Positions 6,719 through 40,252 of a stretch of DNA of 64,000 bases are shown here, piece after piece. The first letter of the stretch is position 1. Each line of letters opens with the position of its first letter. The DNA lies in assembly GCA_020051695.1 (NCBI GenBank), contig JAGVQM010000023.1, forward strand, positions 1-64,000. Direction: 5' to 3'. Below the pieces are notes generated by a model. It was given only the letters and a program-made list of their open reading frames with translations, made no database searches and was not told the origin of the DNA. The translations under genes were made by a program, and so were the position numbers. This DNA is from Candidatus Zixiibacteriota bacterium. Its GTDB lineage: Bacteria; Zixibacteria; MSB-5A5; WJJR01; JAJRUJ01.

Positions 6719-7120
6719 ATGAATGACGCCCTGACCATATTGCGCCGCTGCGGGATAAAACCGACACCGCAACGAATTGCCGTGGTGAACTACGTGCTCA
6801 AAAGCACGACCCATCCCACGGCGGAGGACGTCCTGGACCACTCGCGCAAAAAATGTCCGACCGTCTCGCGGGCTACGGTTTACAATACCCTTAATTTGCT
6901 TGCGGCCAAGGGATTACTCAAGACGCAGGTCTTGAAAGAGGGGACTGTGGTTTTTGATCCGAATGCCAGGCAGCATCACCATTTTATTGACGACGACACC
7001 GGCGTCATTTATGATATCCCCTGGTCATCTTTGGCGGTCTCCGGGAAAGAGAAACTGAGGGACTACGAGGTCCGGGAATACCAGGTCATCCTGAGGGGAC
7101 GCCGCACGAAAAGAAAATGA
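6719..7120 (+). CDS. perR: PerR-type peroxide-sensing Fur-family repressor
   Basis: A 133-residue Fur-family regulator. The winged helix spans about residues 5-75 (TPQRIAVVNYVL, VSRATVYNTLNLL). All five regulatory metal ligands of Bacillus PerR are present at a constant offset of five: His32, Asp80, His86, His88 and Asp99 (PerR His37, Asp85, His91, His93, Asp104). Asp rather than Glu at the last site is the PerR mark. Unlike standard PerR, it has none of the four cysteines of the structural zinc site: where a CxxC is expected it reads IDDDTGVIYD, and the C-terminus ends without cysteine. Catalase follows directly, and similar palindromes precede both genes. The ATG overlaps the promoter and lacks a ribosome binding site. 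Confidence 0.85.
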   Translation: MNDALTILRRCGIKPTPQRIAVVNYVLKSTTHPTAEDVLDHSRKKCPTVSRATVYNTLNLLAAKGLLKTQVLKEGTVVFDPNARQHHHFIDDDTGVIYDIPWSSLAVSGKEKLRDYEVREYQVILRGRRTKRK

Positions 7121-7139
7121 GCTTTTTTTTGTCCAATGA

Positions 7140-7154
7140 TTAAAAGTTGTCTAA
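7140..7154. promoter_or_regulatory. Second PerR-box-like operator, upstream of catalase
   Basis: TTAAAAGTTGTCTAA shares its left half and right end with the palindrome at 6700-6714, and matches the PerR box at about 9 of 14 positions. It lies in the gap between the regulator and katA, 77 bases before the catalase start. A catalase promoter under peroxide control is therefore likely. Confidence 0.5.
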
Positions 7155-7230
7155 AATTGGAAAGAGTCTCGATTGCCGGCCACGGGAGTTATTGCCGCCC
7201 CGGCCTGCATTCGAAAAGCTGGAGGAGCAC

Positions 7231-8667
7231 ATGAAAAAGAAACGGCAGTTGACCACTTCGGCCGGCATTCCGGTGGGCGACAACCAGAACGCCCTGACCG
7301 CCGGGCCGCGCGGGCCGCTCTTGGTCCAGGATTGGCAATTGTTTGAAAAACACGCTCATTTTAACCGTGAGCGTATTCCGGAGCGTGTCGTGCATGCGAA
7401 AGGCTCGGGCGCCTACGGGACGTTGACCGTCAAACATGATATTACCCGGTACACCAAAGCCGGATTATTTGCCAAAATTGGCAAGAAGACCGACTGCCTG
7501 CTGCGCTTTTCCACGGTCGCCGGTGAGCGCGGTGCCGCCGACGCCGAGCGTGATGTCCGCGGTTTCGCGATGAAGTTTTACACGGACGAAGGTAACTGGG
7601 ACCTGGTCGGCAACAACACCCCGGTGTTTTTCGTCAGGGACCCCTATAAATTCCCGGATTTCATCCATACCCAGAAGCGGGATCCGAAAACAAACCTGCG
7701 CAGCAATACCGCCCAATGGGATTTCTGGTCGTTGTCTCCGGAAAGTCTGCACCAGGTCACGATTCTGTTTTCTGACAGGGGCCTCCCGCGCAGTTACCGG
7801 CACATGAACGGCTTCGGCAGCCATACCTACAGTTTCATCAACGCCGACAATGAGCGGTTCTGGGTCAAATTCCATTTCAAGACCGCTCAGGGCATCCAGT
7901 GTCTGACGGGCGCCGAATCGGAAGCCATCATCGCCAAAGACCGCGAGAGTCATCAGCGCGACCTCTTTGAAGCTATCGAACGCGGAGACTATCCCAAATG
8001 GAACCTGAAAATCCAGGTCATGACCGAAAAACAGGCGGGAAAAACGGCATTCAACCCCTTCGATTTGACCAAGGTCTGGCCGCATGGGCAGTTCCCACTG
8101 ATCGATGTCGGAATTCTGGAGTTGAACCGCAATCCCGAAAACTATTTTGCCGAGATTGAACAGGCGGCGTTCTCACCGGCCAATGTCGTCCCCGGCATCA
8201 GCCACAGTCCGGACAAGATGCTGCAATTTCGCGTGGTTTCCTACGCCGATGCGCATCGCTATCGGCTGGGGGTCAATTACGAGAGTCTGCCGGTCAACCG
8301 CCCGAAAGGTGAAGTGAATACCTACCACCGTGACGGGGCAATGCGCTTTGACGGCAATAGTGGGGGGGCGGTCAATTACGAACCGAACAGCTTCGATGGG
8401 CCGGTCGAAGATCCCCAGTACAAAGAACCGCCGCTTAAGATTTCCGGCGATGCCGACAGGTATGATCATCGGGCGGGCAACGACGATTTTACTCAGGCAG
8501 GCAACCTGTATCGGTTAATGTCGGATGGTGAACGGGAGCGCCTGCATCGGGCGATCGCCGGCGCCATGAGCGGGGTGCCGGACAAGATTATCAAGCGCCA
8601 ACTCGAGCATTTCGCCAAAGCCGATCCGGCGTATGCCGCCGGAGTGAAAAAAGCGCTAGGCAAGTAA
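7231..8667 (+). CDS. katA: Monofunctional heme catalase
   Basis: A 478-residue catalase (2 H2O2 to water and oxygen) of the small-subunit class. The distal histidine region is [18 protein letters not shown], the substrate-channel region [17 protein letters not shown], and the heme-tyrosine region [12 protein letters not shown] near residue 330. The start ATG at 7231 has GGAGGAG four bases upstream; an earlier TTG would add a 28-residue tail that catalases do not have. No signal peptide is seen, so it is cytoplasmic. It lies behind the PerR-type repressor and a PerR-like box and ends in a strong terminator. Confidence 0.95.
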
Positions 8668-37349: not shown

Positions 37350-37512
37350 GGGCCTATTGAAAAAGTCCCGATATTGTCATTGCGAGCGAAGCGAGCAATC
37401 TTACACGTTGATGGTATCAATGAACTACAAAAAGATCGCGTCGTCGTCCGCCGCGGCGGCGGGACTCCTCGCGATGACATATCCTCTCATATATGGGTTT
37501 TTCAACAGGCCC
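37350..37512. mobile_element. MITE-like element with terminal inverted repeats
   Basis: Ends GGGCCTATTGAAAAAGTCCC and GGGTTTTTCAACAGGCCC are near-perfect inverted repeats, resembling ends of IS families that open with GGSCCTGTTGAAAAA. Inside is a second, very widespread repeat, starting TCATTGCGAGCGAAGCGAGC and ending CTCGCGATGACA. There is no transposase. It sits between the TonB receptor and the DUF4430 lipoprotein. Confidence 0.75.
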
Positions 37513-37559
37513 TTCATGGTGGGTCAGTAAACGGGATCGATTCGCTTACCCACCATGAA
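37513..37559. repeat. 12-bp palindrome abutting the MITE
   Basis: TTCATGGTGGGT (37513-37524) pairs perfectly with ACCCACCATGAA (37548-37559) around a 23-base loop. Next to it GGTGGGCCACC (37562-37572) has its inverted copy GGTGGCCCACC at 38108-38118, on the other side of the DUF4430 gene. Confidence 0.55.
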
Positions 37560-37597: not shown

Positions 37598-38005
37598 ATG
37601 ATGAACAAACAGATAATCCTGCCGGCTTGTGCCCTGATAGTCCTGCTGGGTTGCGGAACTGAATCTGCGAAACAGGAACGGGCCGCAACAGAAATCCGCG
37701 GGACAATCGACTCGGTTCATCTGTTGATCGATTATGCCACCGACCGGATCGATACGCTGGCAACGGTCATCTCGCGCCATGATTCGCTGGACGTGCTGAA
37801 TTTGTTGATCAATCTGACGCGGCGCGAGAGTATTGCGCTGGTCACGCGCGAGTACGCCGTCGGGACGATGGTCGAGCAAATCGGCGAGCGGCGCAACGGC
37901 GACGGCGGGTACTGGGTGTACACGGTCAACAGCGAGGCGATACCCAGGGCGGCCTCGGCGTATGTCGTGCAGCCGGGGGATACGATTCGATTTTTATTTA
38001 GATAG
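37598..38005 (+). CDS. DUF4430-domain lipoprotein, candidate cobalamin-binding surface protein
   Basis: 135 residues with a lipobox (CALIVLLGCGTESAK). The C-terminal part, RRNGDGGYWVYTVNSEAI and AYVVQPGDTIRFLFR, carries the DUF4430 pattern 'G-YWVYxVNGExx...AYxxxPGDTIxF'. That domain also forms the C-terminal half of mammalian intrinsic factor and transcobalamin. The N-terminal part (~residues 35-90) has two beta strands of the same sandwich. It follows the riboswitch-controlled TonB receptor, though an inserted MITE now separates them. It may capture B12 at the surface for the receptor (inference). The start codon lacks a strong ribosome binding site. Confidence 0.7.
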   Translation: MMNKQIILPACALIVLLGCGTESAKQERAATEIRGTIDSVHLLIDYATDRIDTLATVISRHDSLDVLNLLINLTRRESIALVTREYAVGTMVEQIGERRNGDGGYWVYTVNSEAIPRAASAYVVQPGDTIRFLFR

Positions 38006-38034
38006 ATTTTGTCTGTCCCCAAAAACGGGCACAC

Positions 38035-38080
38035 GCGCCCGCCTCCGGTTCCCCGTTTAACCGGTCGCGGGCGTTTTTTC
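38035..38080 (+). terminator. Rho-independent terminator of the B12 locus
   Basis: A two-part stem: CGCCCGC with GCGGGCG outside, CCGGTT with AACCGG inside, then six Ts. Confidence 0.9.
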
Positions 38081-38281
38081 ATATGTGGCATTTATAAGCA
38101 AAATTCCGGTGGCCCACCCAAAGCGGAAAGTCCGTGCCGCGTCAAGCGGAACGGACTTGAAGCGGCGGGGGGGGTTATTAGATCGATGCCTGCGCGACGG
38201 TATAACCAAAGCGACGGCAAAGGAGCATGGAGCTTATTCACTCACTCGTGGGGGGAGGTGCCGGCCAAAGGTCACATGCCT
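38081..38281. other. Intergenic region at the islet boundary
   Basis: 200 bases without a gene. It holds the inverted copy GGTGGCCCACCC of a motif that also lies at 37562. AGTCCG...CGGACT (around 38129-38155) can form a weak hairpin. Nothing else is evident. Confidence 0.4.
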
Positions 38282-38797
38282 TCACTTGGTTGGCCAGAGG
38301 AGTTCTTTAACGGTGTTGCTGACAATGTCGCTAATTGTATCCTTGAGGACCTTTAAGCCCTCAACGCCAATTTTGCCGGCAGCCTTCTTAAGACGCGTGG
38401 CAGCTAGCTGGGTACGCGGCGATTCTTTAACCAAATCGTCTATACTTCCCGCTAACTTTTCTTTCTCCGCATCTTCGAGACCATCCGTTTCTTGAATAAG
38501 TAATTTGGCAACCTCAATTTTTGATACAATCCACGGGTAAGCAGTACCACATTTTGGGCAATACGCGGGTTGATCAAAAGTAATTAAAGATCCCCCAGGT
38601 CCGGACATAAGACGGTTTCCATTTATATCCGCTTGACACTGTTGGCATTTGTGAATTGTCGGCGCACCACATTTCGAACAACAATTTTGATTGGCCCCCG
38701 GCATTTGCCTCATACCCCGATTGACCACGTGGCCGTTCATGCAAATCTGCGCAATGTCATATTCGACACTCACGTCTCTTCTCCCTCGCAAATTCAT
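38282..38797 (-). CDS. DUF2321 zinc-ribbon protein
   Basis: 171 residues. The N-terminal 90 contain several cysteine pairs: CMNGHVV, CCSKCGAP, CQQC and YCPKCGTAYPW, giving one or two zinc ribbons. This is the DUF2321 arrangement, including 'GGSLITFDQPAYCPKCGTAYPW'. The C-terminal half is a charged helical segment that ends in a weakly hydrophobic helix (GLKVLKDTISDIVSNTV). Two adjacent ATGs follow GGAGGAA; I use the second. No activity is known. The gene is AT-richer than the surroundings and follows the ankyrin gene by 65 bases. Confidence 0.7.
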   Translation of the reverse strand: MNLRGRRDVSVEYDIAQICMNGHVVNRGMRQMPGANQNCCSKCGAPTIHKCQQCQADINGNRLMSGPGGSLITFDQPAYCPKCGTAYPWIVSKIEVAKLLIQETDGLEDAEKEKLAGSIDDLVKESPRTQLAATRLKKAAGKIGVEGLKVLKDTISDIVSNTVKELLWPTK

Positions 38798-38862
38798 CAT
38801 TTCCTCCAAAGAAAAGAAGGATGGGTGGGCCTCCCGACGGAAGCCATCCCGATAATCCAGCA

Positions 38863-39594
38863 TCAAGAATTATTTTTTGCTGTCACAGTTTTAAATAAGA
38901 CCTTCATTTCCTCGTTCTTGCTGGAATACAACAAGTCGATAGGTCGTATACGCTCATAAAATTGCAAGTATAGATTAGCCCCAGCGTTTATAAGGAATTT
39001 CGCACATTCTGAATGCTCATTCATTATGGCATAGACCAATGCAGTGGCGCCTTTGGAGCTGACTTCGTCCTTAAGTTTAAAAGTATATACCAACTGTTTG
39101 ACAGCAAATAGATCACCATTTGAAGCCGCAACGTGCAATGGATTGAATCCAAATTTGTTGATGATTGCTGCGTCCGCTTTTCTTATACGCAATGCATGAA
39201 AAGTCTCACCCCGGGCTTCCTGAGGGTCGATTCCATTAAGGAAGATTCCATCTTGAGGAATTTGGGGACTACTGGATAGAATATTCAAGGGAGTATCGCC
39301 ATCGTTGTTAAGGGCATTTATGTCTGCACCCCAGCATAGTAAGAATTCAACCATCCTGTGCTACCAGCCCATCGCCGCAGCATGCAACATCGTATCGCCT
39401 TCGCTATTGCGATAAGATACGGGGCCACCATCTCTCAGAAATGGAACGACAAAATTCATATCTCCAGCATATGCTGAAATAAGGGGGACATTATCGGAAG
39501 ATTTGTTGTCTTCGGATGTTTGCATATTATCATTATACATTTCTTGCGCCACCCACCCCATGGCGACAGAATTAGGATAATAAATCTGCCCCAT
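38863..39594 (-). pseudogene. Ankyrin-repeat protein interrupted by an amber codon
   Basis: About 243 codons in one frame with a single internal TAG (39361-39363). Upstream of it: GDTMLHAAAMGW; downstream: HRMVEFLLCWGADINALNND, then FNPLHVAASNGDLFAVKQL and GATALVYAIMNEHSECAKFL. These are four or five ankyrin repeats, and the stop falls inside one, so the two halves belong together. Six bases after the TAG is an in-frame ATG, which would allow reinitiation. Otherwise this is a recent pseudogene, or the amber is read through. A strong promoter lies just upstream; the leader is only about ten bases. It is part of an AT-rich islet with the DUF2321 gene. Confidence 0.75.
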
Positions 39595-39610
39595 CAAAAA
39601 ATACGTTCAA

Positions 39611-39639
39611 ATTATAAGATATTTTATTAACGGCCGCAA
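39611..39639 (-). promoter_or_regulatory. Promoter of the ankyrin/DUF2321 islet
   Basis: On the minus strand TTGCGG, 17 bases, then a perfect TATAAT (39611-39616). The start point would lie about ten bases ahead of the ankyrin ATG. Confidence 0.65.
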
Positions 39640-39709
39640 TCATTTTCCCCCCTCTTTTCAAATTGACCTCCGCCCCCTTTCCGCCAATATTCCGGCGGGG
39701 AGCAAGACT

Positions 39710-40252
39710 ATGAGCACCGAGCCATCACGCCGTTTCTGGACCATACCCAATGTCCTCAGTATATCCCGGCTGGCTTTGCTGCCGCTGTTTTTCTGGCTGA
39801 TGTCCCAAGCCGACCGGAGTTATTGGGTTTGGGGCGGAGTGCTGATCGTCTACGGGATAATTTCCGATATTCTGGATGGTTTCCTGGCCCGGAAACTGAA
39901 CCAGATCACCGAAGTCGGCAAATTGCTGGACCCGTTGTCGGATAAAATCACCGCCGGGGCGGTGGCGGTTTTCTGCGTGGTCATGCGCGGGATGCCGCCG
40001 GCCGCGCTGCTGATTGCCGTTGCGCGTGACCTGGCGCTGGTGATCGGTGGACGGCTGGTGTGGAAGAAAGCCGGGACGGTCCCCGGGTCGATGTTTGTCG
40101 GCAAACTTGCTGCGTTGTTCTGGGCCATAAACCTGCTGTGCTGGACATTCGACTGGCAACCGACGGCCGGGCATATTATCTGGCCGGTCGTCATTTTTTA
40201 TGTTATTACCGGCGCACTCTACGCCCGGCGGGTGGTGCACTTGCGCGGTTAA
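39710..40252 (+). CDS. pgsA: CDP-alcohol phosphatidyltransferase (phosphatidylglycerophosphate synthase-like)
   Basis: 180 residues, an inner-membrane enzyme with about six spans. The signature D-x2-DG-x2-AR-x8-G-x3-D-x3-D is present, spread over SDILDGFLARKLNQITEVG and KLLDPLSDK near residues 53-80. It joins CDP-diacylglycerol to glycerol-3-phosphate, or to another alcohol. The N-terminal RRFWTIPNVLSISRLALLPL is typical of PgsA. GGGGAG lies upstream of the ATG. The stop overlaps the end of mtnA by four bases on the opposite strand. Confidence 0.85.
   Translation: MSTEPSRRFWTIPNVLSISRLALLPLFFWLMSQADRSYWVWGGVLIVYGIISDILDGFLARKLNQITEVGKLLDPLSDKITAGAVAVFCVVMRGMPPAALLIAVARDLALVIGGRLVWKKAGTVPGSMFVGKLAALFWAINLLCWTFDWQPTAGHIIWPVVIFYVITGALYARRVVHLRG

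What the first reader, a model, noticed from the sequence alone, without database searches (positions are those of the whole stretch)
38282..39640. AT-rich islet of ankyrin protein plus DUF2321 zinc-ribbon protein
Base composition shifts clearly from the GC-rich flanks, the pair has one strong promoter and a near-leaderless start, and it sits next to mobile-repeat DNA. Ankyrin and zinc-ribbon proteins of unknown function transferred together might form a defence, effector or immunity pair.
Basis: partly seen in the sequence, partly recalled or inferred. Interest (0 to 1): 0.5.

Follow-up and report, generated by a model that had tools for sequence, protein, structure and literature searches.

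The report
AT-rich insertion with two unrelated genes
A small stretch of foreign-looking DNA sits between two ordinary genes of an uncultured bacterium and carries a broken ankyrin gene and an intact gene of an uncharacterised, probably zinc-binding family that temperate phages also carry; the two genes were not seen together in the other genomes examined, so they are probably not a working pair.

Summary
Window 38282-39594 (minus strand) holds an ankyrin-repeat gene with one in-frame amber codon and, 65 bp downstream, an intact DUF2321 (PF10083) gene. G+C is 44.7% against 56.2% for 400 kb of the host genome. It is an insertion: in 6 of 8 relatives of the same family or order the matches to the flanking lipoprotein and pgsA-like genes lie only 41-207 bases apart. 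The promoter and 'mobile repeat' claims are weak.

The proposed ankyrin-DUF2321 pair is not supported. In 49 loci fetched as DUF2321-bearing (partly redundant) no ankyrin neighbour was detected, and the one relative with DUF2321 has no match to this ankyrin.

DUF2321 is the interesting half. Eight predicted zinc ligands are invariant in 36 aligned homologues, and a confident model shows a zinc-ribbon part plus a five-helix bundle. Staphylococcus and Lactobacillus phages carry it on the strand opposite the lytic genes, mostly ending over a small convergent zinc-ribbon ORF. Some chromosomal copies lie beside defence-type genes, but controls did not show enrichment. Most likely this is acquired cargo: an accessory zinc protein beside a decaying ankyrin passenger.

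The parts
38863..39594 (-). ankyrin-repeat protein gene, about 243 codons, interrupted by one amber codon
   Evidence: translation; PF12796, PF00023 and PF13637 over cut-off
39358..39360 (-). in-frame TAG that splits the ankyrin frame; an in-frame ATG follows closely (39354), so restart is conceivable
   Evidence: 1 TAG inside
38282..38797 (-). DUF2321 (PF10083) gene, 171 aa, predicted zinc-ribbon part plus five-helix bundle; intact
38803..38807 (-). Shine-Dalgarno GGAGG, 5 nt before the DUF2321 ATG
   Evidence: read from the sequence
38828..38845 (-). 7-bp GC-rich hairpin in the gap between the two genes, with a pyrimidine-rich run some bases further on; possible terminator or attenuator
   Evidence: z = -1.97, 8 of 200 shuffles fold as well; the terminator scan found none
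39611..39639 (-). promoter-like TTGCGG-17-TATAAT upstream of the ankyrin gene, weak
   Evidence: read from the sequence; not called by the scan
38006..39709 (.). slot between lipoprotein and pgsA-like genes that holds the insertion
   Evidence: synteny
38107..38173 (+). palindromic element; second copy (87%) next to another AT-rich islet
37598..38005 (+). left flanking gene, small lipoprotein (name by eye) found in all 8 same-family or same-order relatives
39710..40252 (+). right flanking gene, pgsA-like CDP-alcohol phosphatidyltransferase (name recalled from the sequence, not from a family scan)
   Evidence: matches in 20 of 20 genomes

Best explanation
The islet is a small horizontally acquired cargo insertion in a lipoprotein-pgsA gene slot of a Zixibacteria-like bacterium. 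It holds two functionally independent genes. (1) DUF2321 is an intact, probably soluble zinc-binding protein: eight invariant ligands (C-H-C-C and C-C-C-C) would form two zinc sites, and a five-helix bundle follows. The family is an accessory gene of temperate phages (on the strand opposite the lytic genes) and of chromosomal cargo loci. It most likely works as a small adaptor or inhibitor, made from the prophage or island state, that interferes with competing phages or mobile elements. (2) The ankyrin gene is an unrelated passenger scaffold gene that is decaying by an amber codon. Shown: gene content, composition, insertion, phage carriage of the family, no pair recurrence in the loci examined. 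Inferred: zinc binding, the adaptor role, the anti-phage action.
For: Composition outlier. Matches to the flanking genes lie 41-207 bases apart in 6 of 8 same-family or same-order relatives, while G001 has a different gene of normal G+C in the slot. Patchy distribution, 2 of 98 genomes. Eight ligands invariant in 36 of 36 aligned sequences. Model at mean pLDDT 92.2. DUF2321 in phiRS7, phi879 and Lj928 and in 15 IMG/VR contigs; both nearest ORFs on the opposite strand in 11 of 19 phage-side loci. No ankyrin neighbour below E = 1 in 49 loci although the controls are found.
Against: An anti-phage action is not shown by any computation here. PADLOC families matched by adjacent genes (92 families, 98 genes) are not clearly more than for genes farther out in the same loci (80, 88 genes) or sampled host genes (72, 97 genes), although the kinds of match differ. 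8 of the 19 phage-side loci do not show opposite strands on both sides. The window copy has no phage-type genes around it that I could see in the ORF list and no convergent zinc-ribbon partner. Both islet genes share strand and a low G+C, so co-transfer of the two cannot be excluded.
Confidence: 0.6

Rival explanations
1. Ankyrin and DUF2321 form a two-gene defence or effector-immunity pair that moved as a unit.
For: Same strand, 65-bp gap, shared low G+C.
Against: No recurrence in 49 loci; the other DUF2321-bearing relative lacks a match to the ankyrin; the ankyrin is interrupted while DUF2321 is intact; a hairpin lies between them.
Confidence: 0.07
2. DUF2321 is a general housekeeping-type zinc adaptor (for example in translation or transcription) that is only patchily kept, and its presence in phages is incidental.
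For: In some chromosomes it sits beside core genes: rlmN in L010, threonine-synthesis-like genes in L012 (named by eye), a groEL-like gene in L030 (by eye; Pfam found one Cpn60 member among the neighbours).
Against: Rarity (2 of 98 relatives; 0 of 14 control genomes) and the opposite-strand position in phages.
Confidence: 0.25
3. The ankyrin amber is an assembly or sequencing error and the gene is functional, or translation restarts at the ATG just after the stop.
For: Only one internal stop; the repeats on both sides are recognisable; the window comes from a 43-contig assembly.
Against: No reads are available; nothing suggests that TAG is read as sense: three of nine neighbouring genes looked at end in TAG.
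Confidence: 0.3

Closest known systems
PF10083 DUF2321 / phrog_16447
   Same: Near full-length match, all eight ligands, similar length.
   Different: The window copy lies in a chromosomal insertion without evident phage genes and without the convergent zinc-ribbon ORF seen in phages.
Ankyrin-repeat proteins (PF12796) of bacteria
   Same: Canonical repeats over cut-off.
   Different: Interrupted; no other Pfam domain found; only weak likeness to Legionella Ank effectors, far below their cut-offs, and repeat-region matches to PADLOC ankyrin models.
Phage 'moron' / lysogeny accessory genes
   Same: Single gene opposite in strand to the surrounding early genes in phiRS7, phi879 and Lj928.
   Different: In the window there is no evident prophage; expression and phenotype are unknown.

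Membership tests
PF10083 DUF2321 | match over Pfam's curated cut-off across the model | tested here: met
   155.4 bits against 24, positions 2-155 of 157
PF10083 DUF2321 | conserved zinc ligands | tested here: met
   C19, H23, C40, C43, C51, C54, C80, C83 invariant in 36 of 36 aligned sequences (incomplete frames and near-copies were not put in)
Ankyrin-repeat protein | two or more ankyrin repeats over cut-off | tested here: met
   PF12796 77.4 bits, PF00023 70.1 bits, read through the TAG as X
Ankyrin-repeat protein | intact reading frame | tested here: not met
   one in-frame TAG
Two-gene defence or effector-immunity system | conserved neighbour pair across genomes | tested here: not met
   0 of 49 loci, flanks up to 6 kb and often cut by contig ends
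Two-gene defence or effector-immunity system | match to a known defence family | tested here: not met
   DUF2321: 0 PADLOC families at E <= 1; ankyrin: only partial matches to PDC-M72A (3.5e-16), Ankyrin (4.6e-6) and MzaA (0.03)
Defence-island gene | enriched next to defence genes | tested here: inconclusive
   92 families in 98 genes, 80 in 88, 72 in 97; individual defence-type neighbours exist
Phage moron | lone gene on the strand opposite to lytic genes in phages | tested here: met
   for the family in three annotated phages and 11 of 19 phage-side loci; not for the window copy
Phage moron | expressed in the lysogen | not testable with these tools
   needs RNA-seq
Harmonin-homology domain (helical part of DUF2321) | same fold | tested here: inconclusive
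   best rows 7de7_A and RTEL1 HHD2, Z 6.7-7.4, below the level the tool calls meaningful for helical bundles; the zinc part was barely tested; best Foldseek E in PDB 0.48

The most novel reading that the evidence does not exclude
In Bacillota temperate phages DUF2321 and a small convergent zinc-ribbon protein form a conserved conflict pair. DUF2321 would be made from the lysogeny strand and block competing phages, and the lytic-strand zinc ribbon, whose gene ends on top of DUF2321, would switch it off when the phage itself induces. The chromosomal copies, including the window's, would be captured DUF2321 without the antidote.
Probability: 0.12. Interest if true: 0.6.

Novelty: new member of a known kind. 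Interest (0 to 1): 0.25.

Why it matters
The finding as given is ordinary: an acquired islet with a decaying passenger. It points to an uncharacterised family (PF10083) whose phage carriage, opposite-strand placement and recurrent convergent zinc-ribbon neighbour give a concrete, testable hypothesis for a prophage accessory function. My full-text search for the family name found one paper, a fungal genome paper (listing only). The search for its accession found five: that same paper and four bamboo papers in which the string looks accidental, judged from titles and abstract starts.

Tried and rejected
Ankyrin-DUF2321 pair: rejected for lack of recurrence. Bounding direct repeats or target-site duplication: none found. 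Prophage or plasmid origin of the window islet: no phage-type genes recognised by eye in the ORF list of 33-45 kb; the window's other genes were not scanned against families. Defence enrichment: three PADLOC scans give no clear excess; only the first 25 families of each are visible, and the ten proteins (6 of 10 with a match at E <= 1e-5) were picked because they looked suspicious, so no statistic is claimed. Solved relatives of DUF2321 by sequence: best E 0.07, to proteins with no plausible link. By fold: no match at E <= 0.001 in PDB or BFVD; weak harmonin-homology-like rows for the helical part only. Coding signature of the phage zinc-ribbon ORF: of six pairs compared by codon position, one (L045/L040: 14, 16, 31 differences) shows a clear third-position excess and the others do not, which counts against calling it firmly coding, although the two CxxC motifs recur. 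Literature, listings only: 'DUF2321' 1 paper; zinc ribbon + moron + prophage + defence 0; ankyrin repeat + anti-phage + zinc 4, not relevant by title; phiRS7 4; Lj928 with lysogenic conversion 0; ankyrin repeat + Zixibacteria 2; at least two of phage moron, superinfection exclusion, zinc ribbon 23, 10 listed; PF10083 5. No paper was opened. The first genome scan with the single protein found nothing. Single-protein scans of viral contigs gave 2, 0, 1 and 1 loci, and the phage-type alignment gave 11, of which L136 and L137 are new contigs.

Full report
What is there. The minus strand of 38282-39594 holds an ankyrin-repeat gene (start ATG 39594 or TTG 39597, stop at 38863) with a single in-frame TAG at 39358-39360, then 65 bp, then a DUF2321 gene with a good Shine-Dalgarno site (GGAGG, 5 nt before the ATG at 38797). 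Pfam confirms both. Composition differs from the host: 44.7% G+C against 56.2% in 400 kb of the same genome, with 47 of 3740 windows as low, and third-position G+C 0.45 and 0.42 against 0.67-0.78 in six neighbouring genes. Patches of similar depth exist elsewhere (parts of L104, L105, L107, L110, L111 and L119 come within 0.02 or lower), so the islet is unusual but not unique. The consensus scan does not support a strong promoter.

It is an insertion. The host genome (3.53 Mb, 43 contigs) lies in the same class as genome G037, whose DUF2321 locus appears to be the same as a contig titled Candidatus Zixiibacteriota (L002 and L010). The genes on either side of the islet are old neighbours: the matched stretches of the lipoprotein and the pgsA-like gene lie 41, 67, 77, 94, 94 and 207 bases apart in G004, G003, G008, G005, G007 and G006. 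G001, of the same family, has a 1.2-kb gap filled by a different gene (330 aa, minus strand, normal G+C), and G002 has the two genes on different contigs. So 6 of 8 relatives of the same family or order show the empty site. I read the slot's ORFs only in G001; the others rest on match coordinates and, for four relatives, the DNA alignment. No bounding repeats were found.

The two genes are not a recurrent pair in what I could search. I collected DUF2321 loci from genomes (26), viral contigs (15), one relative (L002) and phage and plasmid records (seven loci). A search with the ankyrin protein against 2436 ORFs of these 49 loci gave nothing below E = 1, while the window's own halves and the second ankyrin of the host genome were found in the same run; a wider six-frame run over all loci then held found only the host's ankyrins and those fetched as ankyrin matches. 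In 48 of the 49 a DUF2321 profile matches an ORF (L032 does not). The loci are partly redundant and many are cut by contig ends. DUF2321 occurs in 2 of 98 genomes and 2 of 132 of the phylum sample, own included in both, whereas ankyrin matches occur in 28 of 98; G037, the other DUF2321 carrier, has none.

What DUF2321 is. In the 36 sequences aligned, C19, H23, C40, C43, C51, C54, C80 and C83 are invariant, which fits two zinc sites; metal binding itself was not tested. An AlphaFold2 model from 30 sequences has mean pLDDT 92.2, pTM 0.80, short strands over residues 12-63 and five helices over 88-167. No confident fold relative was found.

Where it lives. In phiRS7, phi879 and Lj928 it is a lone gene on the strand opposite the surrounding early genes, near DUF771, RecT, repressor or antirepressor genes. 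Among 19 phage-side loci (copies L034, L047 and L050 left out) both nearest ORFs are on the opposite strand in 11, by mechanical ORF picking. In 12 of 15 viral contigs (L038-L048 and L050), in the three phages (L006-L008), in a phage-like Lacticaseibacillus plasmid (L003) and in a Mammaliicoccus sciuri genome contig (L034), a small ORF of 54-81 codons with two CxxC motifs runs convergently and overlaps the DUF2321 stop by 8-30 nt. L036, L037 and L049, the other 24 genome loci listed, and L002, L004, L005 and L009 lack it. A profile of 12 of these ORFs also found one in L136, not used to build it, at E = 6e-4, but there, by eye, the zinc ribbon is at the other end. L137 has none; the convergent gene there is a different one. 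The window has none. Several of these loci are copies of one another, and the codon-position test is weak.

Defence links. Defence-type neighbours named: ZorA (L028), a TIR/ThsB-like protein (L026), PDC-S31 (L015), a PD-Lambda-3_A-like protein (L011), and Mrr-like nucleases (L016, weakly L019); the other 4 of the 10 picked proteins had no match. Pfam reports Mrr_cat in 3, MmeI domains in 1 and DUF559 in 1 of 98 neighbours; by size and sequence I assign the last two to L037 and L013. AbiE genes lie near the Klebsiella copy. Numbers of PADLOC families matched by neighbours (92, 98 genes from 26 loci), by farther genes (80; I gave 88 of 115) and by sampled host genes (72; 97 of 98) do not differ clearly, so no enrichment is claimed. 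Farther genes also include defence systems (ZorB, ZorC, PD-Lambda-1, type IIG enzymes), whereas the host sample is dominated by kinase-type models.

Judgement. Acquired cargo is well supported. The proposed pair is not. The most likely working model is a phage-associated zinc adaptor with an anti-competitor role, next to a decaying ankyrin passenger; the step to function is inference.

Noticed in passing
L006:6452-6628, L007, L008, L003, L034, L038-L048, L050 (convergent to DUF2321): A small zinc-ribbon ORF converges on and overlaps the DUF2321 stop by 8-30 nt in phage-type loci; not found in the window or in the other 24 genome loci examined.
   Followed up: partly
window 38107-38173 and L107:13976-14042: A palindromic element of about 67 bp (87% identical); the two copies found at E <= 1e-3 each lie about 110 bp from a gene in an AT-rich islet. 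The second islet encodes a 502-aa ATPase that looks HerA-like (name recalled, not scanned).
   Followed up: partly
window 37350-37515: Dispersed host repeat, 9 other matches of 40 bases or more across contigs, containing a motif that resembles known GCGAGCGAAGCGAGCAA-type repeats (recalled).
   Followed up: partly
L096:2317-3309: The relative G001 carries an unrelated 330-aa minus-strand gene (dockerin-like repeats by eye) in the same lipoprotein-pgsA slot, so the slot is a variable site.
   Followed up: partly
L019:3465-3944 and 6778-7281: Two DUF2321 genes in opposite orientation within 4 kb of one genome contig.
   Followed up: no
L021:5944-6447, L027:5995-6279, L035, L049:5947-6300: DUF2321 frames that are split or end early, so the gene also seems to decay in some genomes.
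   Followed up: no
G000:C37:178638-179138: A second ankyrin-repeat protein (234-aa open frame, no stop inside) elsewhere in the host genome.
   Followed up: no
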